Assembly: GCA_011033025.1 (NCBI GenBank)
Contig: WFMF01000122.1
Location: 62,001-126,000, forward strand
DNA from: Beroe forskalii
Taxonomy: Eukaryota; Ctenophora; Nuda; Beroida; Beroidae
DNA: 64,000 nt
Direction of reading: 5' to 3'
Part shown: one piece after another, positions 251 to 59,475 of the stretch
How positions within the stretch are numbered: position 1 is the stretch's first letter
How the letters are laid out: the number at the start of each line of letters is the position of its first letter
The notes under the pieces: model-generated
What the model was told of the DNA's origin: nothing
What the model saw: the letters and a program-made list of their open reading frames with translations, nothing else
Database searches by the model: none
Program-made: the position numbers and the translations under genes

Positions 251-320
251 TGTTTTGAGATGGCGTCATAAGCTTAGCTCAAAATGGTGAGTTGGTGACG
301 GTGAACCGCCTTCGGTTGTC
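251..320 (+). mobile_element. CRE-palindrome element, 3' part
   Basis: TGGCGTCATAAGCTTAGCTC...GGTGAGTTGGTGACG...GAACCGCCT matches the inner and right parts of the family, with the CRE core mutated to GGCGTCA. Confidence 0.55.
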
Positions 321-23400: not shown

Positions 23401-26400
23401 GAGAGAAGGAAATGGAGAGAGAGCTTCGAGTCCTTGAAGACATGACTATGAGCTCATCGCTTGGAATAGTCAACACAATGGGCATTATTATACCGGGGAG
23501 CATTATTATTCAGATTTTCAGATTAGAGGAATTAGTGGGAAATAATGCAGAGGATAATGTTGGAAAACAAAGAAATACAATAACGGCAGAGTTGGGTGGT
23601 TTCCAAGATGAAACATTTCAGGAAAATGACCTATACAAGGACTAATCTTAATGGACTGAAAATGGACAAAATATGGCTGTTATCATGATGGTGTTTGGAA
23701 AGTTAGAAAGAACTGAAGAACAAGACACCTGCTCTGAAAGCTTCAAATCTTGTTTAGTGAACTTTTTTTTTAGCAAAATTTAGATAAAAACGCTCATCCA
23801 GTAACTCATTCTATATTCCAAATTCTATAACAGTCAGTACACCCAGCCAGATTCATCTGGTCTGATCAGTATTCACCTATTCAGTACCACATAAAGCCTA
23901 GCACCACAACCACGCTGTCCACACAAATACCACTAAAATTCTGTTTGTCTAGAGGTTAAAATAGAACTTGTTTGTTTATTTCAAAGAGAGTACAGGGGAT
24001 ATTAATAGCATGTCTAGATCATATCATACACAACTTAAGTAGGCACATACCACCAAAATACAAACAAGCTTCTAGACAAAGCCAACCTGAGGAGACAGAG
24101 GAGAGGAAGAAAGCACTATGAACTGTAAACTGGGATTTGGCATGAACTTTAGTGGTATTTGAGTGGTGGATCACCTAAGATGCTATATTTAGCTAAAACA
24201 AAGTCACATGTTATATTTTTATTTGGAGAAGAAGTTATCATCAACTTAATTTATATCGGAAATTGGAATATGCATTAGAAAATGGCGGGCTTTATGTCTC
24301 GTCCAACATTAATTAAACACCACACTTAACATATAATTATTTCTGGAGAAAGGTGCTAAAGTGGTGATTGCATAACGTTATCAATTACATATATTTCCAA
24401 TTAAAGAGTCTCCTTCTCCCGACACTTCGTCTCCCTGAGTCCTCTAATAAATACGGCGCGCACGAGAAATAGGCGGGGAGGATGACGTCAATATCATAGC
24501 GTGAGGTAGTGAGTTGAAGACGTTGGACCGCCTATTTCTCGCGCGCGGCGTATAAACACGACAGAGTGGTGCAATGGACAGTGGTGGATTGGAGCGTACT
24601 ATGCAGTACCAGTATCACTGTGTAATTACACAGGTCCATTAACAAGCATGGGGGATGGTGAAGAGGTAATGTCTGCTTCAGAGTTCTGGGATAAAACACG
24701 TCATTCGTCAAGTAAATTAGCATATCAATATGGCCGGTACTTCTCGCGAAATGTACTTCAAATCGGCCTGATTGACTCATCGGCAACGTTTTGGGGGCTT
24801 TGATTTCTCACACGCTCAAGCTTCAACTTGCATGTTCTGCAGACAGCAAGACTTGCAAACTGCCTTCTTTAACACCACATAACAATTCACAGTACACACA
24901 ACAGAGGTTTATAGGAAAAAGGAGGCGATTCGATGCCAATAACGAACCACTTTAATCTGTGATAATGACGTCACCCCAATCACCTATGAGTCGTGTACAA
25001 CCAGGAGTCGTGTCTTCTTTGTGTTGATACGATACCATGCAGGGTAGCCAGTAATAGCATCAAACCATGAAAATACAACTACACTCGCAGTTTATGAAAA
25101 ATGGGCGGTTGAATGTGACGTATTATCATGGCTTAGAATGATGAATTGATGACGCTGAAACAGGAATGCTTTGCTCGAATAATATTATATCAACTTGAGT
25201 TATAATTCCTCTCGGTAACATCAAAGAATCGGAATACTATCCACGATACAGAGCCTTCAGTGCAATCAGTGGTTGCCACATGTACACAAACAGAGGTCGT
25301 AGACAGATAATAGGCAGTTGACTGTTGAGAATGACGTCATTATCAGGGTTTATAATGGTGAGTTGTTGACATGTAACTGGCTATCCTTAGCACACAGGAA
25401 CTACCATTAAATCTGAACATGACTCAGTGGAGCCATGGAATGGCTGGAGAGAGTGGTCATGTTCGGACATGCTGACCACACTGCATCTCACAGCCATGAC
25501 CACATAATGCGCCCACTTGAGAAATAGGCGGGTAACATGTCGTCAATCATTATCATGGTGAAATGTAGTGTGTTGATGAATTTCAACCGCCTATTTTTTC
25601 TTGATAGGTTTAGAGACTCATCTCAGTCATATCACAGCCATGAGTGATAAACACCACACAGCACGTAGACTCAAGACTGCTGTGGGGAGACGTCTGGTTT
25701 AAGTCTACTCGAGTACTCGACTTCAGATAAAATCATACTCCAAACACTTCATCACTGAATTGTAACATCTGTGGTTGGTATACCGTATTCAGGAAAAGCT
25801 GAATACTGATTTGAACATCACGAACCCAAGGCATTGAATGGCGAAGATTTTACCCATGAAATCCCCAGAAGACTAATTTTAACAAAACAGAAGGCCGTGT
25901 GCTCGTTTCTATAAATAACCACATTTTGAAACCATTCAGTCGCTGCAGTCTCAGAGACTCTTGCTCCATTGCTTTTAATTATCTTGAATTGAATTGGTGC
26001 GACACTACAACACTCCGAGATATATTTCACCACTTTGTGCCCCAATGGCAATTTGGGAGAAGGTTATTTGTAAGTTGTAACTACACCAATTCCCATTCCC
26101 AGGAAATTAATTAAGCAATTAAGTAATCATTTGCTCAGTTGCACAAATACTTTAATATTCATCCAAACATCTTAAATGTTATTTTGGTAAAAACCCTGTT
26201 CCTTGCAACTCGCAGTCATCATGGGTAATGGGTATTTGAGTATCCGGGTATCCGGGTACAGGATAACCCTATTCTCATTTCTCTGATGACTGGATTCAGA
26301 CCTCCACTGTCAATAGGAAATTACCTCCATAGGGCGTGCCCTGCAGTTAGGGACGTTAAATATAGCCCTGTTCTTTGATGATATTATTTCTATGATTTTT

Positions 26401-29400
26401 GTGAGGATTTTGTCTTGTTGAGCGTTCTACACAAAGGGACTAAATTAATTTACAAGGGCGTTATTAGGTTAGGGAGATAGGGTCACTCCAGTAGGATGTG
26501 AAGTCATGAATCATCAAGGTTTTATCAATTATCGAAGGTGATCATGATTCAAAAGATATCAGATAAATTAAAAAAGTTGATTGCCTTTTTTCTCAGAATT
26601 TTGGCAACACTCATGATTTTCTCTGATTCACAGATTTTTAAACCATAATTTTAAAACCCAAAATTATGACTGAAATATAGATACATCTCATTAAGGCAGA
26701 CACATCTTTACCAGCCCTAATTCACTGTGATTATATTACCACAATATTATATTTTGCAGAGATGTTGCATACGGCCGATACAGTACACACATATCAAAAG
26801 CCTTTGATGTATATTTTTATTTCTTATATTTCTTATCCAAGTAAATACTTGAATAGTACATCAAATTTTGTACACGAAATTTCAACATACTATCGGCCAA
26901 TCGGTTATCAATGGCTTCTAACGTTGTCAACAATTAATGTAATATCCAAATTGCTCCAGTACATAACAATACACACATTTACTGGAAATTAATGCTTACA
27001 TTAATAATCTATCCGTGCTTGTCATGCCCTCTACCAATAATAGATCGTATTTTGGAGGGGATCTGCAGGAGCAAAGTACATGCTACAACCTACAATCAGG
27101 AGGTGATGTGAAGTCATCAAGTTACCACTTTAATTCATGATCATGACGTCATCATCATATGTATCCGATGTTACATTGTGCATGATGTAGGAACGTTCAA
27201 CCAAATTACGGCTCAATCGGAGAAATTATGCGGTAGCTTGCGTAATTCATGCCAAAATACTATTACATTGTAAGTAGCAATATTCTGCGGTATTGGTTAT
27301 AGCTTGTGATAGTATTTACCAATGGGCTAAGAGTATCATTTGAATTGACCAATAGGGTTACAGCATCATTCGAATCCACCAATCAGTATAAAGTATTGTA
27401 GCGAAGCAATGCTATTTAAGTTCTTGGTACGGTCTATCTCCATATGAGGGGTCCCAGACGAGATTTCAGTCGTCATCATTACTTTCTCGATGCTGCAGAA
27501 TCATTCTGCAAGTTCATTCCCTGGATGTCCTTCACAAGACATGTTTGAACATGCTCAAACACGAGGGTCGAACGGAACCATTCCGGAGATCATTAGACAT
27601 GATTAATGCGCGCGTTCCTTGAATAAACAGTTGCATAAACAACACAACCACACACTGAGAAGACAGACAGACATAACACACTGTGTTCACTGTACACTGT
27701 ACATGGACAGACATTCAGACATACATCACACTCCTAGGCATAACATGCTGTCAGCACTTGACCAGGTAAGTGATTAGTGAGCAGACATATTGGTGCCAAT
27801 TGGTGGGTTGTTCCACCTCCAGACGTTATCTCCAATTAGTATATAAGGAACAAGTTATCGTATACATCTCAGGTCGTGCAGGAATAAACCCTCCACTCGT
27901 GAAAGATAGACAGTTCAATGTTATCAACTAACTACATTATAACGCTGTGATAATGACGTCATCGTTACGGCCTATTTCACGTGCGAGCTTATTAACAGAC
28001 GGTTGGGGGTGATGTTTATAGCATGGGTTGATGTGTCAATTGATGATTTCACAACGCCTATTCCTTTCTTGGGTCCTGTAATTCTTGGAAGGGGTAATAT
28101 CTTGAGTTAGCGTGTAGATAAAGTGTGTGTAATCAAGGAGGTGGTAAATGGTCATGAAGTGATGCATATTGCATGTCTAGACATTAAATAGAGACACTAC
28201 CAAGGCATGTGGGATAAACTGTTTAAATTTCCAAAGACATTCTTTGGTTTTTAAAATCAGGTGGTTTTACGCTTATTGGAAATCAAATGATCCATGCAAT
28301 ATCCTAAATTCATTTTCCGATGTTGTCTCACCAAATAATTTACCTTCAAAGAGACAAAGTTGTAAAATGCCATGAATTTCTAGACGACACAAGTTTCAGA
28401 CAATTTTGATTTGTGATATTATAAAGAACTCATATCTCTCAAAATCAGCCGTGAGAAAATCTCCCGAAGCAACCCTTCTCATGAGTCAAATATGAAGACC
28501 CCGTGATAATATGACTATAATCTAGCAAATAACGCACCATTTAATTTGTAAAATGAATTTGATTAAGCAGTTTGATGTTACCATCCTTTGCCCCACAAAT
28601 ACAATGAAACTTTGGAATGAAGGAAATTGGCCGGTCTCGCCAGTTTGTTGCACAAACTATACAGTGCTTCAGGTATGTACCTTCACTGCGTATTGAATAA
28701 GGTTTGACACAGAAAATAAGGCTTCACAGCATTGATATATCAATCTGCATTGCACTATACTATCTCTCTAAATCTCAAATGCACAGCTCACTGAACTGTT
28801 AAACAAGGGTTGTTAAAACAGAAGTGAGCTTCACCTGAAAGTGTATTGGCAGTAAGGTGGCACAGGAGTAAAACTTGAAGACAGGAGTGACTGAAGGTAC
28901 TGCAGATTGTTAAACGTCTGATTTGTTCTGACATCCGGTAGTTAAAATACCCATAATGCAGCAGGGGTGAGTGATCTGGTAGGTAAAGTTAAACACATGG
29001 CTTTATTCTGCTTTATAATGGCATATCAGCTCTTGACAGCAAGTAAAGACTTGGAATTATAGAAACTGGAAGTTACACCAACACAGCAACATGGTATAGG
29101 TATATGCTATGAGGTCTTGGAAGTCAAATATTTTACTAACGGTGTGTATTCTACTTAGCACGAACACACGTGGCACACACTATGTGAGTTCGGACCATTA
29201 ACAACTGCTGCTAGAAAGTGCAGGTAGTAACGTGAATCGTATTCTCAGTATTGCACCAAATATTCGTGGTATCCTACGGGAAGGAAGTTGCGAAGTTAGC
29301 AGGAATAACAGCTGAATTTCATGCTACTTGAGAAGTAACATTAGTCTTAAGACCCTCAGACGTCTGAACTGCGATCATTTTAATCCTTGAGTCAGTAGTG

Positions 29401-32400
29401 TGGCAGGTCGTAAGATTCAGACGAATCTGACCGTATGAGCTGCGATGGTAGGAAAACGGAAGTTTTAAAACGAATATTCCAAGGCAAGATGCCAAGATCA
29501 TGACACACGTAGCGTGTGATTTGAAGTTCTATTATTTCAAGGAGAGACTCATGTGACATGTCTCATTCGCCTAAAACCATTTACCAATCTACCACAAAGG
29601 TACCCCTATGTAAAGCTGTGCAGCTTGTCGTAAGCCATGTTTCCATGCATGTCTCATGTCCCCTAGCTATAATGTAAAGCTGTGCCTCAAAGGACATGTT
29701 TCAGTGAAGGTTCCTGCAATCCTGAATGCCCACAACCCCTGTGTTATTGACGCTCAACAACCCCCAGGGTAAAATGTTCTTGACAGTACATACCTATACA
29801 CACCCTACAACGTACATTTTCAGCAGCTTTTAGCGGCCCAGTACATTAACTTCGTCCTTCTCGAAAAGGAATATCATAGGCCCTGTCTATTGGAGAAAAA
29901 GCGCTCCATTTTATTAGTACACCATTTTAAGCTATGAGAATGACGCTATTCCTAACTGCCCTTCTTCTGTGCAGATGATGTTTATGCAATGTCAAAAAGA
30001 GTGAGTAAAGACCTGGGGAGTAATAATATTATGCAGTATAAATATAAAGCATAATCACCTCGAATACATACAGGATTGAGGTAATACCTACATTCGTGGA
30101 GAATAGTGACCACAATGAAAAGTGGTTTGGTGAATAAGTTCTGACAATGACGTCATTTTCATAGTTTCAGATAGTTGGTTGATGACGAAAACTGCCCATT
30201 CTTTGGATGTTACACACCCGAAAGAATAGTGACAAGTCAGTAGTCCATTACTGCGCTGCATGACCGTTTAATTCAAAGAATATTGTGTTATTGTGTTACT
30301 AGCGATAGCTGTAAATGACTTGGACAATACACATAATATGCCCATAATGCTTAAAATCAGTGATGAATGATGACAATAGACTGAGATAATACACACGGAC
30401 AATGAATGGTGATTTGTGATCACCTAGCATCGGCGATTGTGCAGCGAACTGCAAATTTTCTGGTTGCTATTTCATATTCAGAAGAAAGCTTATATTCACT
30501 AAAATATGATCAGTATTTTGATTAAAGTCATCAAGCTTCCATAGCAATTGCATAGCAAACATGTTTGCTTTGAGTAAACTTGTTCACGTATAAGAATTCT
30601 TTAGTTCAAATAATTTCCTGTTTTTTCTGCAATACTAGCAAGCAATGACACACGCTATGTATCGCGCAAACAAGAACTCAATTTAGTGAATTGCTGCAAA
30701 TTACGTAAAACTCAACAATTTCTTGTTTCATCAGCGGTCAGATAACATTGTGATGTATATAAAAACTATTTTTCAATAATTTCATACCTAGCACGCAATG
30801 CACGTACCAGTTAAAGTTCTGCTAAGAAAATAGTGCGGAGAAATTAAAATCAGGAGGGCAGACAAAAGTGATTCAATACAGAGTAAATTTCATAACGTCT
30901 GAATGAACAGTCATATTAGTGATCTCTATTAATGGAATATCCTGCGATTTGATGAATTGATTCACTTCAGAAACTAAGGATTTCTTATGTCTATATTTGA
31001 AATGCAGGCTGTCGCCTGATGTCACACAGTTTTTAGACTGTCTAGCCAGCCACTGTGGCACACTCTGACACAAGAGAGATACCTATTACCTGCATGTCAC
31101 CAACGATAGGCACTTGATGATGCAGTCAATTCATCATTCTAACCTTTGATAATGACGTCACACTGACCTGACTACTATTCTTGAAACCATTACATCACGC
31201 GCCACAGAAAGTTAGTTTTTGTAACACTCCACCACCCAGCTTACTGACACTATACCAAGATACATACTATACACATTACACCAAGACATGGCAAATCCGG
31301 AGAAATTAGCGTGGAGTAATTTGTTGACAACGCAGAGTGAGGAGAATGGAGAGGAGCCGGCAAGGCGCCAAAGTGCACGTTTGCAGCCACACGCCAAAGT
31401 GCACGTTTTGCAGCCCAACCACGCGCCGAAGTGTACGTTTTGCAGCCACGCGTCAAAGTGCACGTTTTGCAGCCACATGCCAAAGTGAACGGTTTGCAGC
31501 CACACGCCAAAGTGCGAATTTTGTCTCTCAACCACACACGCTCAAGTCTCAATCCAAGAGAATGTGTTAGCCAAGTTTAGACATTCTATTACAATTACAT
31601 CTTTCTCACTAGCATATCATACTGTTTGACATATTTAGTCTTCAGATACCAGAAAGCATACTACTGTCTGACATTGAAAGCACCCGGAAGTTACTTCACT
31701 ATGTCATTGTCTGTCATATTCTAACAAGTGGTGAAGGCTAAAGTCTAAGAACGCTGTCAAGCAGTGTGAGCAGTATGTCACAGCTCAGTTTGACACCTCA
31801 ATGAGTCAGTGGTAGGTATGTGGCATGACAATATGAGGTATATTCGGTATGTTGTAACTGTGGCCGGTGCCAGGAGGATTATTGCTGAGTGAGGTAACCC
31901 GTCACTTTGAACTGTATTTGCAGAGTTCTGGAGACTGTGCAAATCTCACTAACTATGATTACAAATCATATGCTGGTTACTAAGGTTGTCGGTATTCAAG
32001 AAGTCTGTTTCGCTGATATCATCATCAAGCTATCAAGGGCATTGTGAGCTGAGAGCACAGTTTTCATATTATTCTTCAGATGGCTTGGTTAATTAACTCT
32101 CCACAAGGATTAGCAATTAGCATCCTCTGAGCTTCTACTCAGTCTTCAGGATGATATACGCTCATGTATATATTCCAAATTTCAAGATCTTGCTCGATGA
32201 ATATACAAATACAGTCATCAACTGACTACCTTAACCCCTGATAATGACGTTACTCTCAACCGCTGTGTCTTGATTTACAGCACAGGATATTTACAACGCA
32301 GGTCAGTGATTGCCTGTGTAATTGGTCAATCATCAGAGCTCTATAATTACCCCCTTTCTGAATGTCACGTGACTGATGGTTATGTGGTTCACGTGACAGC

Positions 32401-35400
32401 AGTTATAAACATTTACAAGCTCAATCATCGGCCATCAGAGGCAATTTCCTAGTTAAATTGCCATCCCTAAACTTCGTTTTTTGGGAGTTCCTACTTCCTC
32501 TTCTTTAAAAACTCACATATTGAATTCTAAAATTCAGAGTTCGGAATCGGATATTCAGAAGAATACAGTGTATAAAACTCACAAATATAAAAAAGCTGTA
32601 CCCTCACAGAAAATTCCGATCAATGATCTCGCTTCCTTTTTACCACCATGTGATCTCAACGATTCTCTTATCTTTTCCACTGTTTTTGTGAGCCTTTTCA
32701 CTGTGCGTATGTTTGTTTGTATTGTGTTTATCTGTCAGTACGTTCGTAAGTGTCATATCTATTTGTACTTCTAGAGTCCTAAATTCCTAGGCTCAGGATC
32801 ATTCACAATAGCAGGGTGCCATCAATTGATCACGCTAAACTATGACAATGACGTCACTCTGAACAAGCTATTATTTCAACATGAACTGTAAGCCCCTACT
32901 GCTGCTGCCTCATTGACCTCTGTACTCTGGAGCTTTGAGACCATGTACTCCTATACACTGAGTTCTGAGCTCTGAGAAGGAGCAATATATACTGCCCACA
33001 GGAGAAAATGAAGATAGTAGATGACGTCATTATCATAGTTTATAGTAGTGAATTGATGACGTAGCAGCGTTGTTTATTGCAGGAGGAGTTATGAGTGTGT
33101 TTATCTGTCATGAGATCAGAGATTGGCTAATGAACTCAATGTACACACACCACACAACACGCATTAGTGACGTCATTATCACAGGTTAGAGTGGTTAGTT
33201 CAAAGCTCCGAACAATGAAAACACTCACACGACACACATGTTTAATGTTTATCAGTTTTATAATCGGACATTGTTAATGTGATTGCAGGATTTAAAATAA
33301 AAGGGTCCGGGCCAGGATATATCATGTTAAAATTCACACAATAAGAGACTGGTTAGAGTCATTATCTGGTTCTAATGTGAGGGGTTGATGTTGTGAACCG
33401 CCTATTCCTGTGATCAGCATGTGGGAGTTGGGCATGTGGCCTTTGTCTTCTCGACAATGACTCTGGGATCAATGATATAGGAGAGAGTGATGAGAATCAA
33501 GAGATATAGGCGGTTATGATGATGTCATTATCATGCGCAATGTAGTAAATTGATGACATCGAACCGCCTATTCTTCGCGTGCAGCCAATGTTCTCCGTCT
33601 TGAAATGAGATTAATGATAGGTCCACAGACCACCTGAGAGTTTAGAGTTCAAACTCCACATTGGAGTAAGTGTTCATGAAAATTCAGATAGTGAAATCGG
33701 AGATCCTATAATATTTATCACGATCCTTTTCTTCAGTGATTTGCCAAAGACTCTAAAGTCTTTCCAGTTTCCATCATGATCATACATCACTTTACAATGC
33801 TGGAATCTCAACCCCAATTGCGAAATTTACAGAAGGAAGACTTTATTTGAGTACATTGCTTTTATTCAAGCACTGAACGGACCAACGTAGCTTCCATATG
33901 AAATCACTTACTATTTGTCATTTGACCACACCTATGATCAACTAAAGAAATACTTGATTTTCTGCTTATTGCTAAACATCAGTGCTGTATAATAGTATCA
34001 AATGGTGCATACAATATATATACAGAATAGTAGAAGGTGACACCATTATCATGGTTTGGGGCACCATGAATTGGTGTCTGATGGTCAACAAAAGGTCTAT
34101 TTATAGGACACGCGATTCTTTATTGACTCGACCGCTTGAAAAGTCTTTGAAAAGTATACGCAAAACCAGATCATTGCTGTCAGGCTTATCATCATACACA
34201 CCATTGAAATTGCAGTCCTGTCACAGAGATCAGCCAATAGGAGTAGAGCCATAGAGTTCTCAGCCAATCATAGTCAAGATATCGAGTTTTTCAACCAATC
34301 ACATCGATGCTGTGGATTTTTCCGCCAATAAGAGCACAGAATCTGTGAAGTCCGGAGCACGATACGATAAACAGATCAGAGAGTCTCCAAGTCTCTGCTT
34401 TTGTAAACCGGAGGTATCTAATAATAGCCATGACTGCGAAGTGTGGTTAGATGAGGCGTCTCATTCAGGGAGGCTAAGGGTTGTATAGCGAGCAGAGTCT
34501 ATTGGAAATGATAACATGCTATTCATTTACTGAGTTAGAGTTAGGAGAGTGCCACCAAATGGTTGAATGCCGAAAAAAACATTTTCCAATGCTAGATTAT
34601 TTCCGTACAAAGTTACTACTTTACAAGAAGCGTCGTGTGTTAACTGTTAAACCTTTGTTTAAAAGTAAATGTAAATAATATTTTCTACTATGTTGTGTTG
34701 GCTGCATAATGTTATCTCTATTGCTTTAATTCCAGATAATGAGCATAGATGAAGGCAGCTCGTTATTGGACAATAATGGGCCGCATGCTTAAGCATCTGA
34801 TTGGATAGTGACGGACATCCTTTAGCTTTTGATTGGATAATGTTTATTAGAGCTTGCTTTTGATTGGATAATGTTGATCACAGCTTGCTTATGATTCGAC
34901 TATCGTGCCATACGAAACATACGATGCTAAAAGTCGGTGAGTTTAAAATGGTATTTAATAATTTCGCTCAGCTCAGAATTCAATAAGCAAATTGTTGAAT
35001 AGGCAGTCCATTCTTATATTTCACAAATACTCAGTCGTGCAACTTCTCAGATTCACTACAATATGGACAGAGATAACTGTGTCCGCCCAGAATCTGAATC
35101 CCAAATGACAGTAAATTTTCCCACAATACCTAAAATCCCCAAAACCCTCTATGCTCAACTTAGTAGGCCTTTTCAAACAACTTATTATAGTATTATTTGA
35201 ACATTTGAACAGCGCATCGAACGGTAAATGATAATGGTGGTTTCCATTGGAAGGTCAAAAATAAAGTTTCCTTGTCGTTACTTGCGTTTGTTCCTGCTCT
35301 CCTGCAAAGCGTTATAAACAGTCCAGCTCGGAAGGTTTTTTCACATGGTTGCAACTGAATGCATTCTAATCAATTGAACAGAACCTAGGTCATATATCTG

Positions 35401-38400: not shown

Positions 38401-41400
38401 AGCGCTGAAAAGGGAAGAAGGGTTATATCGAAAGATAGGGGACTTGTGATGAGTAAGATTAAATTTTGAATTAGTACAGGTCAAGTTTTCAATAAGATAG
38501 TGATGCAATATGCAAATTGAAATCTGAACGTCACTGTGTGTCGTAATCCTACCATCCTACTATCCTACTACTAGTCCTTTAAAAATTCTTGGAATAAAAC
38601 CCTCACAGTACAATAATTACATCCAACAAAAGGAAAATGTACCAGTTACCCCAATTACCGTCTAGAATAAGCTAGACCTACACAAAACCTTGTAATAGCC
38701 TAACATGAATCTTAATTTCCTTATACCCCTCATACATCATGTAATAACCTGTTACCCACTTTTGTAATTAAAATTTATGGTTGTAATAAAGAGTCGGAGA
38801 ACACCATACCACGACCATATAATTAACAATGAATAATTATGAGTACAGTGTTTAATACAGATCATGATCTGTATGGAGGCCAATGAACAAGATGCATTCA
38901 TAGGAGGAGGATTTAATTGAGAGGAGGATGATTTCATTCCCAGAATTAGGGTAAATATTCCGTTTAAAGAGGAGGATTTAGTCGGGGTATTAGTAGGAGA
39001 ACTCCATGAATTCCGTGAGGAGAAAGACGTTGGTAAAACCGGAGAATATTTTCAATGCAAATACATCTGGTACCCCCTTTTAACTCTTGGGAGGATGCCT
39101 ATACATCCCTGAAAGATGCAAAAACCGTAGGCACTGATAGGGGAGATCCTACTAGAACTAGACTTTCATCAACAATTTAATCCGCTCCCTGTTATTAATA
39201 TTAAATCCACCCATTGTCACTTATTAAATCCACCCAGTATTCCATCTTTCCTATGAAAGCATGAAGCCTGAGGCTGACAGACCTCCCTCCTAAGCATGAA
39301 TAATGGATTATTTGGAGTATTTAGCATGTAGACCAACTTATATTCAGTAATGAAGCATCTAAAATGGATGTTCAGTAGTCGTTAATGAATCAAGAACCAT
39401 TTAACGCATCATCTGCTGCACGCGACGCCATGGGAACATTCAGCCTTCTAGAACCCATCTCATACCAGCTAGTTAACTAAGGCACTTAATTAATAATTAT
39501 AAATACCTCCAGCCCTCTCAGTTGGCCGATCAATGCATTGTCCACCACTAGCATGTCAATGATAATAGTGGTATAATTGCCTCATCTCACACTTGATTAG
39601 TAATGGGGAAGCGTCAAGAATTGTCATAGAACTCGGGAAGATCAAAAGTGATAATTGCCACAGGACCTCGATTAGAGAAGGTTAATCAGCCCGCTGATTA
39701 TGTGTCATGAGAGTGGCACAGGCGGCTTGACACCACTATTTGACCATTCTAAACAATGATAAAGACGTCACTAGCAGAAACCTATATTGCTCCTTCACGT
39801 TGTATAGAGTTGGTTAATTTACTCACAGAGAGGTAGTTTATTAACTTCCACAGCTGTTCAGAAGACTAATCAGAAGCTGAAGACTCTAAACACACTTCTG
39901 ATAGAGTCTTTTAATTGATAATCAAATCTCTTTGATCGCATGTGGTATGATTAGAGTTTACATGTTATTTATTAGAGTTTGTAGGTTATTTCTCATGATA
40001 CGTTGTATAATAATGGGGGGGGGAGCTAGAATTTATATATATTGACACAAGATGTAATGAGTCATGACACAACAGTCAATATTATATCTGATTACATTTA
40101 CTATACACGTGGTAATCGAACGAAGTAAAGACACAGAAAGTAGGAGGTGGTGCGCACGAACAATAAACACATCAATGTCAACAATTCCCCACTTTAACTC
40201 ATGATAATGACGTCACTCTCAACAACCTAGTGATTGTCTATAACTAGTAGCAGAAGATGGTATTTGTACAGACACCAGATGGTGATCTCAAGGGAAGGTT
40301 TACAGGATGAGTAGAGGTAGGATTGAGGACAATGGATGTACAGACAGCCGATACAAAGTCTGGATATTTCTCAGAATTACAGCTTCTTCAAAATGAACAG
40401 TATCAAAAGCTAAGAAGATTTGAAGATGCTATGAAACGATCTGAAGATTCTACGGAACTAGGAAAATCCTAGAAACCGTCGAATCCCAGCAATCAAAGAA
40501 TCGAAGAAGATCAGTTTAACTCAGCTCAATTCCAACCCTTCCTCATATGATATTTATTAATGGATTTTCTACCCTTCCTCCTTTGATTCTTTGGTGCAAG
40601 AACCACCAACACAAAAGACTGGTATAGTTCCTGCCGATCCCTCCTCGAACTACTGTAGATGAAAAGATGAAAGTATCATCGCTAGTCGTGTGTGGTCACA
40701 ATGGGAAGCTTTACAAAACTCAGGCTTGTTACTGAGATGCGTCAACTCACATTACATAATATGTTATGTACAAAATGTAAATATAACTCCTTCTGTCATC
40801 AACTACAGTTATTACATGACGTATAGTTTCAATTTTACTTCACTAAGTTACACTTAGCTAACAAATTTCTAACTTATATGTTAAGGCGGAAATTTGTAAT
40901 GTCTATGAGAATTTCAATCATGGACATAAAGATTCATGACTCTCGACCCCTATGGACCAGATCTCTTTCTATCTTGAAGATTCTGTCACTTAGCCGTAAT
41001 CTAAACTTATTTTATTATCCACTTTCTTATTTTATTTCAACCTTTTCCATTCTTTCATAAACTGGTCAGTGATTTCTCATTTTATATCTTTTTCAAACAT
41101 TATACTTTCCTCAAATACTAGTCGATCTGAATCATTTGGTTAGTCTCATATCCTATTATTTTCCTCATTTTGCCATGATCTTCAACCCCTCATTCTAACA
41201 TTTCTCTTAGATCTGCTATCCTTTACTATCATCTGCTATCCTGCCTCATATCCTAAACTACTACACTTCACTTAGTCTGTCTAATGACCCCAATCATCTA
41301 GGTGCCATGTTGTTCCACCCCCTCCGGACTTAGCCGGGTTTATATTGACAATATACCATGTGCTCTGTGTGACTCGTACTACCATACCCCACTTCATCAC

Positions 41401-44400: not shown

Positions 44401-47400
44401 ACCAATGTCAATGTTTTGAAAGAAATGAAAATAAAACTTTTACGGGACCTCAAAATGACCATGTTTCAGTGGTTGTTCCTTTCATTTTGAAGAAAATGCT
44501 TTTAAAGCACCCATACAGTTTGCACGATGGACCGAGTTTGTGCACGGAAGTTTGTACACTGGAGTTTGTACATCGGAGCTAAATGTGTGTAAACACTGTG
44601 GAGTATATGTAAACTGTGTATTGTTCAGTGTACGAGTATAATAATTGTATGTAGGGATGGTGCGCGCGTTATACTTGACGTACAGTGCACGCACACGACG
44701 CGCATGGGCCGCAAATCAGTACATGCATGAGGCTGCCTTACAGATTCCCAGAAATCTAACAATTGTAGAGTAAGTACTTATAATTGCCAGATGGCGATGA
44801 CGACTCCACAACATAATCATGTAATGGTATTGACCTGACAGCTCCTGTGTTGACGGCAATTTCCCCGACAATACCGCACTTCCCAGCGATTTCCACGGCA
44901 ATGCCGGAATTCTTCCGTAGTTCATACCATAACATATAACACGACAACTCTCAATATTCGATGATATTATTGCAGAGCTTTACCCCATTATCTTACAAGT
45001 TAATGAGCAATAATTCTCGCATATAATTGAGGGATAATACTGGAGATCTGTCCACAGAACAGGGTAGACATGATGTCTGACATCGCCTGCACCACTTACA
45101 CACGAGGGTGTGTGTGTGTGTGGACTAGTAACCACTCCCTCTTTAGCTTGTTGAAATGAGGGTAATTAACAGTTCCCAACTCCCACCACAATCTCTCCCC
45201 TTAATAGAACTTCACAGCTCCACAACATCTCTCTCCCTTAACACCCATGACAAGGCCCCGGAGGGTACTTAGCATACACCCAGCGAGGAGAAAAGGAGAG
45301 TCACAGTCTCACAGAACACGCTATAATCTCTCTCTCCTGTCACAGGTTTCTTGACAGTTCCATGTGTGGGTACTCTCATCTCATCACTATCACAGAGTTG
45401 AATTTACACCACAATATACGCACCCCTCTCTCTCCTACAACTCATGATACCAGTGACATTAGGAACTAATGAGATGAGGCTACCAGCTCATACTCTCATC
45501 CAACACACAGTGCTCTCACCACTTCACCACATGTTCTGACACAGTTTCCATGAAATATTGTACCCATCTCATTAAATCTAACAGAGTTTAATGTACCCCA
45601 ATTTCAGTACTCATCTGATTAAATCTACAGACTTTATAATGCACCGCAATTTCACTCCCCTCCTACCCAATCTCTCACTCTCCCAACCATTAGCTCTCAT
45701 CTTTCTGTATAGTCCATAATAATATCTACTCAGCTTAATTCTCAGAACTCGTTATTATTTCTATAATTGGCAGCATCATGGTGCCCCCAGCATTTATTAG
45801 AATTATTGCCTATTATTATTAGGGATGAGAAGGCGTGAGTGGTTTCTTGCTGGCTGACCATGCCCCATTGTCTCGCTCTAATATCATAGACGTGAGTCTG
45901 GAAAACATGCAGTGAGTCGGCAGACATCCACACGTCAGACATCTGTCTGCCCTTCTACTTTCCATTTCCCCTCACCCTTCTCACTTCTCAGGATCACATT
46001 GAAAGTCATGATAGTAAGATAAATAGTGGCCAGACATTCGGCGCCCTACTACAACCTCCTTCTTCCTTTTCACCTTCTCTCTTCATTCCATTTCAATCCT
46101 CTTCACTGCATTATTTCAATCATGGTAATGACTAATGATGATGGGGTATTTACCTCATGTCTCACATCATTTATCATAATCACGACAATAAGTAAGTGGG
46201 GGAGGGAGTATGTGAATGGGAAATGTCTTTTGAAATGCGCATTTTATTTATGCGAAGTTTCAGTAAAAGAAATAGTTCAGTAAAAGAAATAGTTTATTTT
46301 ACATCAACAATCAAATAATATGTCCGATATGTTAGATTAGAAAATGTACATGGAGTAGTGGCGGCTATTTGAAACACGGAAATTTAGTATTTGCTCGAAA
46401 ATTGACGGCTATTTTGATAACTTAAGACTTGAATTGAGATAAGAGGTAACTCAAGGTGGTTAAAAAGTATAGGCATTTCCTTATGTGCTGATGAAGGAAG
46501 GAGTACTGGCGTTTGTTCCTCACCGCGGGACACATCATGCCTGGCAATTTAAATCAAAACGTCGTGTCATTTGAGCTGAAGTTCAAGGAATGTACCTTCA
46601 TGTGATTGATTGGTTTCATCAAGCGTAGTATTTATGTAGTATGCAACTTGCATAACTGGAAATGTTGGCTGGTGTGAAATGTGTTGTGGCTGAGTCCATG
46701 ATATCACCCACAACGAAAACTTTGATCACATATACCTGCTACCTATAGAACCTGAACCTTTGCAGCAAGAGTAAAGACTACAGCAGGCGTGAAAAGGTAA
46801 CTCTGTTTAATGGGCATAGATAATCGTGGATAGGCCCTGGCACGTATAGTGACGAAAAATTCTCATGATGAGTCAGTGATCTTAAAGTTTACTTCTGGGA
46901 ACCATTCCTCCTCACTTCCAATATTTTGTCTTCTATTTACGAGACATTTAATTTTGCTTTTCAGAAAGCTAATTCCAACTGAGAAATCTTTAATGTCACT
47001 AGCTTCAGGCAAGGTACGGAAGGTGTTCCCACATAATACTAGCCCTAAAGATAAACGAGTCAACTTGTATGGGCGCTATAATCAGGTCGGTTTCCGGCGT
47101 GATATTTTAAAGTGTGGAAGGAGAGCTATTGGTGTATGATATTTAAGGATAATGCTGATACTGAGTAGAACATGATAATTATACAGATTGTGGACAGTTA
47201 GAATATTCTGTTCATTAAATAATGGCTTGGTATGTTCTTTTTTCAAAGAAGTCGGTCCCAAGAGTTTGAAGTTCAATAGACCTAGTCCTGGCAGCTGTTC
47301 GGTGCTTTTCTAGGTAAGCCTCACTATCACCAAACATTATGCGGATGCAGTGTTTTGAGCAGTAAATATGGGTTTCATTTTATTATGTGAAACACCTCCC

Positions 47401-50400
47401 CATACTGTTATACCATAGCTAAGGTGACTTTCAAAAAGAGTATGATAGAGACTTTTGTATAGAGTTTTAGGGATGTACTTTTTTAATGCGATTCAGTTGG
47501 CCAGTACAGCATCTCAGTTTTTTGGCAAGAGCAGATATATGCGGTGTCCACAAAAGTTCGTCATCGATTGTTACACCAAGAATTTGATTTCAGCAACCTT
47601 CTTTTTATTTCAAAGTCATTTATTCTAACAGGCGGGCATTGCAATTGGTCTACACTATTTGTGTTTGATTTTGGTTTGAAATGCATATAGCAAGATTTTT
47701 TTCATATTTATGTGAAGCTTGTTTGCATACATGTAAGAAGAGACTGAAGTTAAAAGAAAGTTTGCTTTCCTGATAGCTTCCTCCTTACTATTACCTACGA
47801 TAAAAGATATTTGTATCATCAGCAAATAAAATGAACTTTCCTTGATCAGAACAGTTTGAAAAGGTCATTAACATATATTAAGAACAGTAATGGTCCAAGG
47901 ACACTACCCTGAGGCACGCCATAAATCACTTTCAGTGGGTCAGAGTCAGATTTCAAACAATTCACATACTGTGTCCGGTTTGATAAGTAACTATGGAGAA
48001 GGGAGTGCGTTACCCCTTATACCATAGTGATGTAGTTTATCCAAGAGAATATTATGATCGATTGTGTCAAAGGCTTTGCTGAGATCTATGAAAACACCTA
48101 AGACGTGCTGCTTTTCTCTAAGGGCCTCTTGGATGTAGTTCACTGAGCAATTTAAAAGCATGGCTGGTAGAGTGCCCTTTGCGGAATCCGAACTGATATG
48201 GTTTATTATTTGCTGAGATGATAGAAAACTATAGAGTCGTTCATAAATAACTTTTCGAAAATTTTACCAAATATTGGAAGTGTGGAGACAGGACGGTAGT
48301 TCTCGAACAGTTCTTTATCATCCTTCTTATAAACAGGTGTTATTCTACCAACCTTAAGAATATCAGGGAAAATGCCGTTGGACATTGATGTGTTGATGTG
48401 CTTGGAGAGAAATGGGCTTATTATGCTACCAGATCTTTTGATAATTTTGATAGGTATGTCACTTGATTTGTTGTTTTCAAGGCTTAATATTATCTCGTTT
48501 ACCTCATCAGGGGTAGAATCCTGTAAAAATATACTAGAAGAATGAGAGCGTCCGAGAAATACCGTGAATGGTTGTATCGGTTCAATGTTTATAATAGAGT
48601 AGTCATCCGGTTCGTTTAATTTGGATGCGAGGGAAACAAAGTATTTATTAAATTCATTTGCAATGATTCTGCGGTCAGAAACAATTTTTTTGTCTATCAT
48701 AAACTTAGAAGTTAAAGCAGAGTTTCTCTTGCCTCTTAACTCATTCACAGCTGCCCATGTTTTCTTTAGGTCCCCTTTGTGCCTGGAAATCTTAGTGTGA
48801 TAGTACCTACATTTAGCTGCTGTGATAGCATGTTTAAGAGTGAGCCTGTAGCTTTTGTAAGTTTGATAAGCGTGTGAGTCACCTACGCTGTCTAGTCTGC
48901 TCGTTGTAGTTTTCCATGACTGGTAAAGATTTTCTTTTTGTTGATAGAGATAATCAAGCCATCGGTTATCCATGGGTTGACCTTCCAATTTCTTTTAGAA
49001 AATTTTGGTTGTTTGAGCTTAAAATTTTTTTCAACATTGTTGTTGTAAGTATCAAGAAAATCGTCGAGATTATTGCCAAGTTTGTTTTCACATGACAGTT
49101 TCTGTAGGTGGTTGATAAACAATTCAGTATTAGACTCACTGTAATCGTAGGCTGGCCACAGGCTCATGGCAAAGATTTCCATGCACAAGGTCAAGATAGA
49201 AAAAACCGATGAGTGGTGAGACACTGACTCCTCGATCGTTCCAGTCACCGCTATGTTTGAGGGTTGGAGGTGAGGATATTATCAATACAAGTTTTTCTAC
49301 AGTTAGGCTGGCAATGGGTATACTTGGAAATCAAGGAAACAGGCCAAAAGATTGATCATCTCCTCAAACTTTTGGAATTCTCATTACTCAGTGTAAGAAG
49401 AAAGTCGAAATTGAAGTCACCTAGCAGATAAATGTTCTCATTTGGACATTTTTTTAAAATTTTTTCTAGTTCCATGATGTATTGTTTATCATCCCCACTT
49501 GGAGGGTTGTATGTGACTCCAATTTCATAAATTACAATGCTTTTTTGTCCACCACCAAATTTCAAAGAGAAACGAGACTTATATTAGCAGAAACTCTCAA
49601 AGAAAATACTATAGCTCTCAATAGTGTCCAATACAATTATGGTCAAATTGGTGTCAAAGATTTGAAATGCATGTAACAATCTCTCTCTTACGATTTAATC
49701 TAACACTCTGGTGTTCGATGGAGTTATTAATTTTGGAAATTAGTTTGTTAAGTCGCCTCGAGGGGTTGAAGCACACAACAGGTTGCTTTGTTAATAAATC
49801 TGTGATTAATCTTGAAGTAGCCCTAGTAATTCATTAAAGCCGCCACTTTACATGGGCTCTAATAAATTGTATATAGTGTAGCACTACTGTTGCACACGTC
49901 TTACTAACACTAATTAGAAAATGGCAAGGTAATGTGGCAAGTGCAACAACACATGGTGCACTAAAGAGAAGTTAACTTTTCAGTTACACCAGGGAAATTC
50001 CTTAATTTCGCATCTGTAGTTCTACAAGATGGTAAGATGCTACCGCATCAGCTTAGTGTAACAATTTCAACATGAAACCATAGTTTATTGGTTTAGCTGT
50101 TTAGGGTAAGCCAATAGCTCGGGCGCTAAAGTGTGCAGCCCAAAATTCTTGCTTTCTTGCAATAATTGGAGAGTCTAAAATTAATTCAGTCTCCATAAAA
50201 CTTGAAAAATCGCTTAAATGTATCATTACATGTGGGCATCTGCTGAATCGACCATGCTAGAAATAGAAATTATGATATTTCCTGTATTTATATTTCTTTC
50301 GATGCGCTAAGTATCTTGAATATTATTAGGATAAATGTAATTTAAGTTATCTTGGTGTACCCATAGTAACCAGGCTTACAACTACACACAAAAGCCAATT

Positions 50401-53400
50401 AGTATTTATTGGTACCCACTGCTGGAGTATGAATACAAAAGACCCATTCTCAATAGATACACGTCTTAGTAACTAGCTAAATTATACGATGTCAGAGTCA
50501 AGATTGTGTGCTGCCAACGTTAGCTCAGAACTGAGCTAGCTGCTGTCAGAGGAGACTGGCGTCAGTGTGATATGGTGTCAAGATGAAATGGTGTCAAGAT
50601 GAACTGGTGTCAAGATGAACTGGTGTCAAGATGAACTGATGTGGAGATGAACTTATGTCAAGATGAAATGGTGTCAAGATTGACTATTGTGTTTTGCATA
50701 ATCAAAACCCAAAAAAGGAAAAAGGTGGTTCGACATAACCAATTTACCATTGTAAACCCTGATAATGACGTCACTCAACAAATTCCTGAACCCCCAATTG
50801 TTGCCTCACAGAAAAGTGGCAGCTAAGGATCTGTACACGCAATCATACCTTATAAGGAGATTAGTATATCGCAACTCAGTATAGGTACACTAACCAGTCT
50901 GAGAAATTAAGGTCTGTAGAGTGTAGACCCTTATTACTAGAGCACCAACTACAGGTACAAAGTTTAGGGGAGGGCTGAGGTATATTCTCTTATCTGATGT
51001 CACAACAGTTCTTGTTTCAGGCGACTCAATCAAATATGAATTCTTTTGGAGTTTTGGGGTTTGATAATCATACCAAAAAACTGAACAGTGCTAGGGTTGT
51101 TGTATCATCATCGCCTACATTTTATAATGCTCTTGAACTGAAACTTACCCACTGTTTTTCTCTGATTTAGCAATTCTCACGGGAACCAAAATCTAATTCA
51201 TGAATTTCATTATTTCACCCTCATCAAGTGCTCTGCTACCCTTTGTTTGTACGCCTTAAGACGCCTCAAGTTTCCAAAAGCTCCCTCGCAATGTTACATT
51301 TCATTCAACTGTGTGAGGAAATTTTTAGGTGGTGATAATGGTACACGCATAGGAGTTAATATATTATATTCATTTGTTTTCACACGTGACACTGGTTCTC
51401 GCACATGATTGGCCAGTGCGAGGCGGGGTTCCGAATTGTGATTGGTTCCCAGGTACCAAGGTTCACGTGCTCTAAGTTCTGGACGGTGATTGGTTTTCGA
51501 AGACACGTGCTCGAGGTTATGGGGTACGATTGGTTCTGAAAAGAGTTGTAGCAATGATAGAGCACTGCTAGGTGTGTGTATTGAGGGGTAGAAAAGAGTA
51601 TGTGAGAGAATTGAGGCTGTGAGGGAGGTTTTAAAATTTTAATAGAACTACTGGACTTCCATCGAAATAATGATAATATGACTCTAAAAATCTTAAAGAT
51701 GCTTAAAAAATGAGCCAGAAGTTTATGACCTAATCCCATAATGTACGAACAGATAATTACGACATTGAACGATCGATAACATTACGTCACAGAAAAGGAA
51801 TGATGACGCATACTCACATATCTAGCCTCGTGTTTCTCGTGAGACAGCTCGTTGAGGATGGTCCTGACTCTGCCAGCAGGGGAGCTGGAGATGGCACCCA
51901 GCAGGTTGTTAGCCCCTGAAAACACAGGGTTACATAAAGAAAGGTAGGGGTGAATCATGGGGGTGTTAGCACCTGAAAACAAGGAAGGTGATGTGGGGGT
52001 CAAGGGGTAAATCAGGGGGGGACGTTAGCCCCTGACACACAGCGCGGGTCAGGAAGGAGTGAATCATGAGGCGATGTACCAGGTCACCAGGATTGATCCC
52101 GGAGCGGAGTCTTGAGGAAATAGTTAGATACTTGACATATCTTCCAAACCCAAAGTTCGGAAGAATCCTCGTGTTTTGCATATTGCTTTGAATCTTGAGC
52201 CTATTTAATGAAGTCTTGAGATTTGATAACCAGGTAATCACAGTGCGCACATTGCTCAAATTAAACTTCTACTTCTGCTGGATAAATAGCCCGTGAACGA
52301 TACAACAGGAGGCTTCCTAAAACCTTGTAGAATCTCTCACCAGTCCCACTATTGCTGTCAACCATTGACGATTTACTGGATCCCTGGATGAAGCACAGCT
52401 ACAGTTCCAGTCACCAGACAAGGTGATTGATCTCATTAGACATTCTAGGAACGTCAATTCATGTCTGAGATGAAAGTAGCGTACTGGTAGACTAGAGTTG
52501 ACAAGAAATTGATGGGAGTTTGCGTGAGACATGGCAAGTTCTCCACTCTATTAAAACCTATGGTATTTTCAGAGGTATTTAAACGGCAATGACAGGCTCA
52601 GTGAGATGGTTAGTTCGGTACTGGAAGGCTGAAATCTTCATGTTGTACGGGTTCCTAGTACCGCTACCAAAACAGCACCAGTGGTTTTAAATTGGAGAAA
52701 TGGATCGGATGAAGGATTTTAAATATTTATCAATGTCCACGATATATCTTATGGAATATATATTCAATTCTTATTTTAAATTCAAATCAATGAAAGCCCA
52801 ATTCAAACGACCAGAACTAAAACATATATTCTGTTTAATGACTGCATACATCTTTCAAATTCTATCCAAAACATCCTGTATATAATTATTTTCATAACAA
52901 AGATAGACTTGCTTACTTCTGGAATTCTTTAAAATGGCTACAGTGAAAGCACTACAACATGATTGATATTATTCCGACGTATTCATCTTATGCAGGAGCA
53001 CTATTTAAAAACAGAAGATCTGACGACTTAGCATCAGAACTATCATCAATAATCTGCTTGCTGAATCAGTGACGAGGCAAAACACACCATGAACTCATGA
53101 AATGGAGCGAAGGACAACGGGCATTTGAGGACATTCAACATGATTGCTTTGTTAAATCATCTAATCTAAAAGTGGTGTCTGAGTTAGAAGTAATAACGAA
53201 GTGTTGAACGTGCTACCTATTTGACGAGATATCAAGAGCACACTGCCTAGTCCACTCAATCAAATGAATAAGCTCTTCCAATTTTATCGGAATCTGTACA
53301 TGTAAAATAGCGACTTATCATCTGCTAATATTTACACAGTTAACATGATTATCCACGAACTACATGATCTGGACACCTTACCTGCGTGCACACACACGTT

Positions 53401-55169: not shown

Positions 55170-56540
55170 ATCAACTCATAACACACCCAAGTCAACTCAT
55201 AACATGCCCCTCATCAACTCATAACATACCCCTATCAACTCAAAACACACCCAAGTCAACTCATAACATGCCCCTCTCAACTCATAACACACCCCTCTCA
55301 ACTCATAACACACCCCTTTCAACTCATAACATACCCCTATGAACTCTTAACATACGCCTATGAACCCCTCATCAACTCATAACCCACCCCTATCAACTCA
55401 TAACACACCCCTATCAACTCATAACATACCCCTCTCAACTCATAACACACCCCTTTCAACTCATAACACACCCAAGTTAACTCACAACATACCCCTATCA
55501 ACTCATAACCCAGTAACCCACCCCTCTCAACTCAAAACACACCCCTTTCAACTCATAACATACCCCTATCAACTCATAACATACCCCTCTCAACTCATAA
55601 CACACCCCTTTCAACTCATAACACACCCAAGTCAACTCATAACATACCCCTATCAACTCATAACACACCCCTATCAACTCATAACACACCCCTATCAACT
55701 CATAACATATCCCTCTCAACTCATAACCCACCCCTCTCAACTCATAACCCACCCCTATCAACTCATAACATACCCATTACCCCTCTCAACTCATAACATA
55801 CCCCTCTCAACTCATAACACATTTCAACCCACACCCAAGTCAACTCATAACATACCCCTATCAACTCATAACACACCCCTTTCAACTCATAACACACCCA
55901 AGTCAACTCATAACATACCCCTATAAACTCATAACCCACCCCTCTCAACTCATAACACACCCCTTTCAACTCAAAACACACCCAAGTCAACTCATAACAT
56001 ACCCCTCTCAACTCATAACACACCCTTTCAACTCATAACATACCCCTATCAACTCATAACAGCCCCTATCAACTCATAACACACCCTAGTCAACTCATAA
56101 CATACCCCTACCAACTCATAACCCACCCCTATCAACTCATAACACACCCAAGTCAACTCATAACCCACCCCTCTCAACTCATAACACACCTCTTTCAACT
56201 CATAACATACCCCTATCAACTCATAACACACCCCAGTCAACTCATAACATACCCCAGGCAACTCATAACATACCCCTCTCAACTCATAACACACCCCTTT
56301 CAACTCATAACACACCCAAGTCAACTCATAACCCACCCATGTCAACTCATAACCCACCCCTTTCAACTCATAACATGCCCCTATCAACTCATAACAGACC
56401 GTATCAACTCATAACACACCCCAGTCAACTCATAACATACCCCTATCAACTCATAACCCACCCCTATCAACTCATAACATACCCCTTTCAACTCATAACA
56501 TACCCCAGTCAACTCATAACATACCCCTATCAACTCTTAC
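55170..56540. repeat. ~1.37-kb minisatellite, 21-bp unit, ~65 copies
   Basis: Unit CAACTCATAACACACCCCT plus two variable bases. Variants differ mainly at ACATA/ACACA and in CCCCT(A/C/T)T versus CCCAAG. Because 21 is a multiple of three, long heptapeptide open frames (STHNTPL, CYELRGV) arise on both strands. They are not genes. It lies 0.25 kb upstream of the first RIPOR exon found. Confidence 0.95.
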
Positions 56541-59095: not shown

Positions 59096-59099
59096 AGCA

Positions 59100-59475
59100 A
59101 CTTAGCCCGCATGCAGGCACGTGTATGCAGCAGCCGCGCGCAGTCCCTGTACGCGCATTCAGCAGCTGTGCACATTCAGCATGCGTGCATGCGCATTCAG
59201 CAGCTGTGCATGCGCATTCAGCAGCTGTGCATGCGCATTCAGCAGCTGTGCATGCGCATTCAACAGCTGTGCATGCGCATTCAACAGCTGTGCATGCGCA
59301 TTCAGCAGCTGTGCACGCGCATGCACCAGCTGTGCACGCAGTAGCTGTGCACGCGCATGCAGTAGCTGTACACGCGCATGCAGTATCTGCGCATGCAGCA
59401 GCTGCGCACACTGCACGTGCTTGCAGCAATTGTGCATACTGCACGCGTGTGCAGCAACCGTACCATGGGCGCATG
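59100..59475 (-). repeat. Same 21-bp minisatellite, inverted orientation
   Basis: Units of GCGCATTCAGCAGCTGTGCAT correspond to the reverse complement of the first half's unit (GCGCATGCAGCAACTGTGTGC), with about 4-5 differences per unit. The junction is near 59085-59150. Each unit contains CAGCTG. Confidence 0.85.

What the first reader, a model, noticed from the sequence alone, without database searches (positions are those of the whole stretch)
24452..50777. Swarm of a short palindromic element carrying a CRE (TGACGTCA) core inside the RIPOR introns
At least 22 copies of one ~70-105-bp sequence were found, two at the left edge of the window and the rest within 24-51 kb. The consensus is GAGAAATAGGCGG...GATGACGTCATTATCATGGTTTA...GTGGTGAGTTGATGACGTTGAACCGCCTATTTCTC. 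The whole unit is an imperfect palindrome. Half copies keep the inner TGACGTCATTATCA...GTGAGTTGATGACG part in either orientation. This inner part stays recognisable, often with an intact 8-bp CREB/ATF site, where the outer ends have decayed. It is a non-autonomous element family that has scattered CRE-like sites through a gene's introns, or a selected regulatory repeat. I do not recognise it as a described family.
Basis: partly seen in the sequence, partly recalled or inferred. Interest (0 to 1): 0.82.

Follow-up and report, generated by a model that had tools for sequence, protein, structure and literature searches.

The report
Genome-wide MITE-like repeat, conserved CRE core
A short inverted-repeat mobile element is scattered in very many copies through this genome, and its inner 14 letters, which look like a CRE site joined to a GATA site, have decayed less than the rest, so a DNA-binding protein probably uses or used them.

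Summary
The repeat is real. A profile finds 25 copies in the window (14 on +, 11 on -), 23 of them at 22,393-50,776; 15 of the window's 17 TGACGTCA octamers lie in them. It is not peculiar to one gene: the core 14-mer TGACGTCATTATCA has 7,719 exact matches in the 216 Mb genome against 3 for the reversed word. Young copies are MITE-like: an imperfect palindrome of 86 bp or more, with inverted ends around a 35-36 bp unit that is sometimes tandem. The same 14-mer lies in two other inverted-repeat repeats. In 35 copies not chosen by the core, the 14 bp (CRE plus GATA-like TTATCA) are 8.7% diverged, the right half 24%, the ends 26-32%. Neutral decay simulated through the profile never gave this (0 of 2000 samples). 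Hairpin pairing is not kept, so the motif is probably read as double-stranded DNA. I read it as a MITE family carrying a bZIP/GATA-like site that is partly constrained after insertion, comparable to C. elegans CERP2/CELE2. Constraint acting only in the source elements is the main rival. The RIPOR label was not confirmed. The genome-wide decay counts I planned could not be made: the genome server did not answer from then on.

The parts
255..312 (+). element copy (decayed, inner part)
   Evidence: nhmmer 37 bits
1555..1638 (+). near full-length copy with both inverted ends; exact core 14-mer at 1578
   Evidence: 66 bits
22393..22455 (-). element copy
   Evidence: 30 bits
24459..24545 (+). near full-length copy with both inverted ends; arms extend to GCCGCGCGCGAG
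   Evidence: 65 bits
24917..24995 (-). element copy; exact core 14-mer at 24960
   Evidence: 51 bits
25095..25159 (+). element copy with a 1-bp deletion in the core
   Evidence: 39 bits
25315..25391 (+). element copy; exact core at 25332
   Evidence: 52 bits
25516..25598 (+). copy with both ends kept; core changed by a small insertion and a substitution
   Evidence: 44 bits
27094..27155 (-). element copy
   Evidence: 38 bits
27898..27985 (-). near full-length copy; exact core at 27948
   Evidence: 52 bits
27994..28065 (+). decayed copy next to the previous one
   Evidence: 23 bits
29892..29971 (-). element copy
   Evidence: 30 bits
30144..30203 (+). element copy
   Evidence: 32 bits
31098..31183 (-). 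element copy; exact core at 31147
   Evidence: 39 bits
32192..32264 (-). element copy
   Evidence: 39 bits
32816..32875 (-). element copy
   Evidence: 34 bits
33017..33070 (+). element copy; exact core at 33022
   Evidence: 42 bits
33168..33200 (+). inner fragment; exact core at 33168
   Evidence: 24 bits
33358..33409 (+). weakest copy kept; part of the core lost
   Evidence: 22 bits, E 1.3e-5
33498..33579 (+). near full-length copy with both inverted ends
   Evidence: 61 bits
39719..39776 (-). element copy
   Evidence: 30 bits
40153..40236 (-). element copy; exact core at 40202
   Evidence: 52 bits
41418..41470 (+). element copy
   Evidence: 39 bits
43749..43812 (+). element copy
   Evidence: 32 bits
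50718..50776 (-). element copy; exact core at 50760
   Evidence: 41 bits

Best explanation
A MITE-like, non-autonomous DNA element family, dispersed genome-wide. Intact copies are an imperfect palindrome: inverted ends (about CGCGCACGAGAAATAGGCGG), then a 35-36 bp unit that begins with the 14-mer TGACGTCATTATCA and ends in GTTGATGACG, and that can be multiplied in tandem. The 14-mer is a double-stranded protein-binding site, by sequence a full CRE (bZIP of the ATF/CREB type) abutting a GATA-like TTATCA. Copies insert, ends and linker decay, and the core has about a third of their divergence because a host DNA-binding protein still uses many copies (regulatory or architectural role). Shown: dispersal, anatomy, lower divergence of the core in the copies examined, no upkeep of hairpin pairing, recurrence of the 14-mer in other repeats. 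Inferred: the class of protein, that selection acts after insertion, and any effect on genes.
For: 7,719 exact 14-mers against 3 for the reversed word. In the 35 copies of window, L020 and L021: core 42/482 = 8.7% diverged, right half 141/579 = 24.4%, left end 96/302 = 31.8%, right end 83/322 = 25.8%. Core less diverged than the right half in 31 of 35 copies, and than the ends in 30 of the 32 that have enough end letters. Uniform decay simulated through the profile: core/right ratio mean 0.92, minimum 0.59 in 2000 samples of 35, observed 0.36; share of copies with core below right half at most 0.80, observed 0.89. Scanning with the right half alone: of 19 places at 16 bits or more in window, L020 and L021, 13 have 0-1 core mismatches. 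Private variants only: core 18/458, right half 43/481, linker 44/262, left end 37/243, right end 31/270. Within one subfamily of 13 copies: core 10/182, right half 25/195, ends 70/399. Pairing of the palindrome equals shuffled expectation, 1693 of 2323 cells against 1689. The 14-mer also lies in a TACCTTAGGAGG inverted repeat (L002, L009) and in both arms of the L019 fold-back.
Against: The copies free of core ascertainment number 35 and all come from one 84 kb stretch. Some right halves have no recognisable core: at 11 bits or more, 8 of 31 places in window, L020 and L021 have 7-9 core mismatches (at least one of these is a 1-bp deletion), against 1 place in the whole reversed host set, so lost cores exist. 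In the subfamily test only 6 copies are free of ascertainment (7/84 core against 52/278 elsewhere, p = 0.028). Weak linkage among non-core positions (mean n*r2 1.33 against 1.0) leaves room for diversified source elements. There are no orthologous copies, chromatin or binding data. Constraint at thousands of sites would be a lot.
Confidence: 0.5

Rival explanations
1. The core is constrained only in the source elements, for example as the subterminal binding site of the transposase or of a factor needed for germline activity. Sources diversified in ends and linker while keeping the core; each copy decays neutrally after insertion.
For: The same 14-mer recurs in at least two other inverted-repeat repeats and in tandem inside the element, as expected of a cis-motif used for mobility. 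Linkage between non-core positions is slightly above independence.
Against: Variants private to copies are also rarer in the core (18/458 against 43/481 in the right half), and a single subfamily shows the same bias (10/182 against 95/594; p = 0.0002; but 7 of its 13 copies lie in loci fetched for an exact core).
Confidence: 0.33
2. Plain MITE debris: uniform neutral decay; the better core is an artefact of finding copies by their core.
For: The profile was trained partly on loci chosen for an exact 14-mer. Some right halves lack a core.
Against: Neutral simulation through that profile gives nearly equal divergence in core and right half; detection by the right half alone gives mostly well-kept cores (13 of 19 with 0-1 mismatches at 16 bits or more).
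Confidence: 0.07
3. The 35-36 bp unit is the primary repeat, a dispersed satellite monomer, captured by several inverted-repeat elements; the 86 bp element is only one carrier.
For: Tandem arrays of 35-36 bp units (seven exact cores in L010; further tandem units in L011-L013), and the core inside other repeats.
Against: Many decayed single copies still align with remnants of the same inverted ends (by eye on the alignments).
Confidence: 0.1

Closest known systems
CERP2 and CELE2 MITEs of Caenorhabditis with the m1/m2 motif pair bound by HIM-17 (PMC9757741; abstract and passages seen)
   Same: Short non-autonomous inverted-repeat elements carrying a motif pair at thousands of places (1,458 divergent and 2,566 tandem pairs outside open chromatin), in divergent or tandem arrangement; m1 and m2 show elevated conservation over neighbouring sequence.
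   Different: Different motif (here CRE plus GATA-like); no sequence kinship tested. There binding and promoter function were shown, here neither. Constraint there was measured in promoters across species, here as unequal decay among paralogous copies.
Mutator TIR motif at placozoan chromatin-loop anchors (PMC12221973; passages seen)
   Same: A motif inside the inverted repeat of a DNA transposon that recurs at many sites and may be recognised by a host architectural protein.
   Different: No superfamily is assigned here and no contact data are at hand; the placozoan motif lies at promoters, promoter association was not tested here.
MITEs amplifying E2F sites in Brassicaceae (as told in the review PMC12595863; passages seen)
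   Same: Several MITE families amplify one transcription-factor site.
   Different: Plants, other factor; the passages seen do not speak of the motif outlasting the element.

Membership tests
MITE (miniature inverted-repeat transposable element) | short, non-coding | tested here: met
   86 bp model; arm similarity reaches about 10 bp further out in 22 arms
MITE (miniature inverted-repeat transposable element) | terminal inverted repeats | tested here: met
   GAGAAATAGGCGG/CCGCCTATTTCTC with CGCGCAC outside in young copies; fold z = -8.7 for a young-type sequence typed with idealised ends
MITE (miniature inverted-repeat transposable element) | high copy number, dispersed in both orientations | tested here: met
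   7,719 exact cores, 3926 forward and 3793 reverse; window copies 14+/11-. Not every exact core lies in this element.
MITE (miniature inverted-repeat transposable element) | target-site duplication of fixed length | tested here: inconclusive
   TA 18 bp outside AATAGGCGG in 8 of 22 arms, fewer at neighbouring offsets; no sharp boundary
MITE (miniature inverted-repeat transposable element) | autonomous partner sharing the ends | not tested
   genome search not answered from then on
CREB/ATF (bZIP) binding site | TGACGTCA octamer | tested here: met
   15 of 17 window octamers lie in copies
CREB/ATF (bZIP) binding site | bound by a bZIP protein in this organism | not testable with these tools
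   no ChIP, DAP-seq or ATAC data
structured RNA or hairpin element | base pairing kept in the copies | tested here: not met
   paired cells equal shuffled expectation: 1693 of 2323 against 1689 in 115 copies, 580 of 799 against 576 in 35; no Rfam match in the window at gathering thresholds
CERP2/CELE2-like co-opted MITE | motif bound by a host factor and active as promoter | not testable with these tools
   no binding, accessibility or expression data; position relative to promoters not tested

The most novel reading that the evidence does not exclude
Several MITE families have seeded this genome with about ten thousand composite CRE-GATA sites, and a host protein holds them under purifying selection after insertion wherever they lie, including far from promoters: a genome-wide distal regulatory or architectural network recruited from transposons and readable from unequal decay alone.
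Probability: 0.3. Interest if true: 0.8.

Novelty: new member of a known kind. Interest (0 to 1): 0.5.

Why it matters
MITEs that spread transcription-factor sites are known. What would be unusual here is that paralogous copies by themselves suggest that the motif outlives the element. If the constraint acts after insertion, the genome carries a ready-made, testable network of sites with one motif, and the copies give a natural series from intact to decayed. If it acts only in the source elements, the motif points to the transposase or to a factor shared by at least three repeat families.

Tried and rejected
Hairpin or RNA function: pairing not maintained, no Rfam match at gathering thresholds, no clear strand preference in the window (14+/11-). 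Detection artefact: tested by simulation and rejected. Local composition as the sole cause: the near-palindromic partner of the core (positions 56-64) decays faster than the core. A scan of viral contigs for the 14-mer returned single matches per listed stretch, which I take as chance in a very large collection; not used. RIPOR: no Pfam match for the two ORFs at 14.5-15.8 kb, only one PDB match at E = 0.072 for one of them, and a RIPOR N-terminal fragment recalled from memory gave one hit at E = 0.63. Literature (9 of 10 searches used; apart from the three papers named above I saw only listings with the starts of abstracts): the text search for pieces of core and ends listed one unrelated paper; searches on sponge repeats, MITEs, CREB and ATF listed 0, 10 of 67, 3, 3 and 8 of 125 papers, none of which by title describes such an element. 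led to the three papers cited. One script timed out (redone); one stopped with an error after three rows of output, which are used (the rest redone).

Rows dropped: L005 was left out of the host set because it overlaps L004. For figures on 115 copies, 13 of 128 were dropped (7 of L010, 4 of L012, 2 of L013; mostly tandem units). Figures on window, L020 and L021 use 35 of 128 copies. The other loci were fetched because they hold an exact core, so their core divergence is biased low. Copies were found with the third profile of the iteration and aligned with the fourth; the simulations used the fourth for both. Clustering used only the first 100 listed places, all on contig C1, collapsed to 88.
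Full report
Observation. The window lies in a 216 Mb genome of 1,134 contigs with no relatives held. TGACGTCA occurs 17 times in 64 kb against 0.81 expected; the end word GAGAAATAGGCGG with up to 3 mismatches occurs 28 times against 9.3. An iterated profile run on 161,906 bases (window plus fetched loci) found 128 non-overlapping copies, 25 of them in the window. 15 of 17 octamers lie in copies; the exact 14-mer TGACGTCATTATCA occurs 9 times in the window.

It is genome-wide. The 14-mer has 3,926 forward and 3,793 reverse exact matches in the genome; the control (word read backwards) has 1 and 2. In window, L020 and L021, 12 of 35 copies keep it exactly; if that share holds elsewhere, the family has of the order of 20,000 copies. 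This is an extrapolation, and some exact cores belong to other repeats. The exact cores are clustered: of the first 100 listed places on C1, collapsed to 88, the variance-to-mean ratio in 25 kb bins is 3.5 against 1.0 at random, with 15 in the richest bin. The stretch 22-51 kb of the window holds 8 exact cores where the genome mean is about one per 28 kb, so it is one such cluster and not a special property of one gene.

Anatomy. Young copies are near-perfect at the ends: CGCACGAGAAATAGGCGG ... CCGCCTATTTCTCGTGCG. Similarity of the arms reaches about 10 bp further out, but no sharp boundary or target-site duplication could be fixed from 22 arms (TA 18 bp outside AATAGGCGG in 8 of 22). Inside lie TGACGTCATTATCA, a variable linker, and GTGAGTTGATGACG. 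The length from core to right half is unchanged in 88 of 102 copies (25 of 32 in window, L020 and L021). In L010-L013 the 35-36 bp unit is repeated in tandem. The 14-mer is also found in a different inverted-repeat element with TACCTTAGGAGG ends (two copies, L002 and L009) and in both arms of a fold-back in L019.

Unequal decay. In the 35 copies of window, L020 and L021, divergence from consensus is 8.7% in the 14 bp, 24.4% in the right half, 31.8% and 25.8% in the left and right ends, and 37% in the linker. The core is less diverged than the right half in 31 of 35 copies and less than the ends in 30 of 32. Because the profile was trained partly on loci chosen for an exact core, I simulated uniform decay, with CpG sites 1.5 times faster, and passed it through the profile: core and right half then differ by under a tenth (0.203 against 0.221), and none of 2,000 samples of 35 copies came near the observed ratio (0.36; minimum simulated 0.59; a first simulation, gives 0.168 against 0.185).

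Independent scan. Scanning with the right half alone (positions 48-77) finds 19 places at 16 bits or more in window, L020 and L021, of which 13 have 0 or 1 core mismatches; the reversed host set gives 1 place in all 162 kb. Against the reading: at 11 bits or more there are 31 places, and 8 of them have 7-9 core mismatches (one is a core with a 1-bp deletion), while the reversed set again gives 1, so copies or fragments without a core exist.

CpG sites. The CpG of the core is kept at C27 28 of 34 and G28 34 of 35; the other CpGs at C15 16 of 25, G16 14 of 25, C62 25 of 34, G63 16 of 34, C70 18 of 30, G71 25 of 30. G28 stands out; C27 only mildly, its losses being mostly C to T.

After insertion or in the source. 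Non-core variants are only weakly linked (mean n*r2 1.33 over 1485 position pairs, 115 copies), so most divergence is private to copies. Counting only variants that are neither consensus nor the commonest alternative, the core still has the fewest: 18/458 against 43/481 (right half), 44/262 (linker), 37/243 and 31/270 (ends). Within one subfamily of 13 copies it is 10/182 against 95/594 (p = 0.0002), and in the 6 of these not chosen by the core 7/84 against 52/278 (p = 0.028). This leans towards constraint after insertion but does not settle it. The whole-genome test I had planned was not possible, because the genome server did not answer from then on.

What conserves it. Probably not a hairpin: pairing in the copies equals shuffled expectation, 1693 of 2323 cells against 1689, and the two sides of the inner stem decay at different rates. 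So the motif is most likely read as double-stranded DNA. By sequence it is a CRE octamer abutting TTATCA, the complement of TGATAA, a GATA-type site (motif names recalled, no motif database used). Which protein binds is unknown.

Known kinds. The nearest published cases are the CERP2/CELE2 MITEs of Caenorhabditis, whose paired motifs bind HIM-17 and are conserved in co-opted promoters (PMC9757741, passages), the Mutator TIR motif at placozoan loop anchors (PMC12221973, passages) and E2F sites amplified by MITEs in Brassicaceae (review PMC12595863, passages). This element resembles these in anatomy; no sequence kinship was tested and no function is shown here. Hence 'new member of a known kind'.

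Gene label. The claim that the copies lie in RIPOR introns was not confirmed: two minus-strand ORFs at 14.5-15.8 kb have no Pfam match, and a recalled RIPOR domain finds nothing significant. This does not show that the gene is not RIPOR. A reverse-transcriptase fragment lies at 47,991-48,263, within the same stretch.

Noticed in passing
55170-56536: 21-bp minisatellite (ATCAACTCATAACACACCCCT), about 64 units, also reported with periods 42 and 63.
   Followed up: no
58460-59458: GC-rich tandem repeats, mostly 21 bp (TGCGCGCACACAGTTGTTGCA and GCGCATTCAGCAGCTGTGCAT), that leave several frames open on both strands; the long ORFs there are probably repeat artefacts.
   Followed up: no
19595-20244: Two tandem copies of 321 bp, 96% matching.
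   Followed up: no
47991-49278 (-): Probable retrotransposon remnant; RVT_1 match on the ORF at 47991-48263 just above the Pfam cut-off.
   Followed up: no
5460-5741 (+): Rab-like small GTPase exon (Pfam Ras); ORFs at 7172 and 7772 look like its continuation by eye, not scanned.
   Followed up: no
61003-61029: Two TGACGTCA octamers 19 bp apart outside any element copy, in an exon-like ORF (60089-61468, -).
   Followed up: no
L010 (G000:C1:1188000-1191000): Tandem array of 36-bp units, seven with the exact 14-mer; the 86 bp ends were not seen in the part printed.
   Followed up: partly
L019 (G000:C1:1300500-1301500): Fold-back repeat with the exact 14-mer in both arms, flanked by degenerate CCCTAA/TTAGGG-like runs.
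   Followed up: partly
L002 and L009:9648-10000: Another inverted-repeat element (TACCTTAGGAGG ends, GGGGATTTTTC inside) carrying the exact 14-mer.
   Followed up: partly
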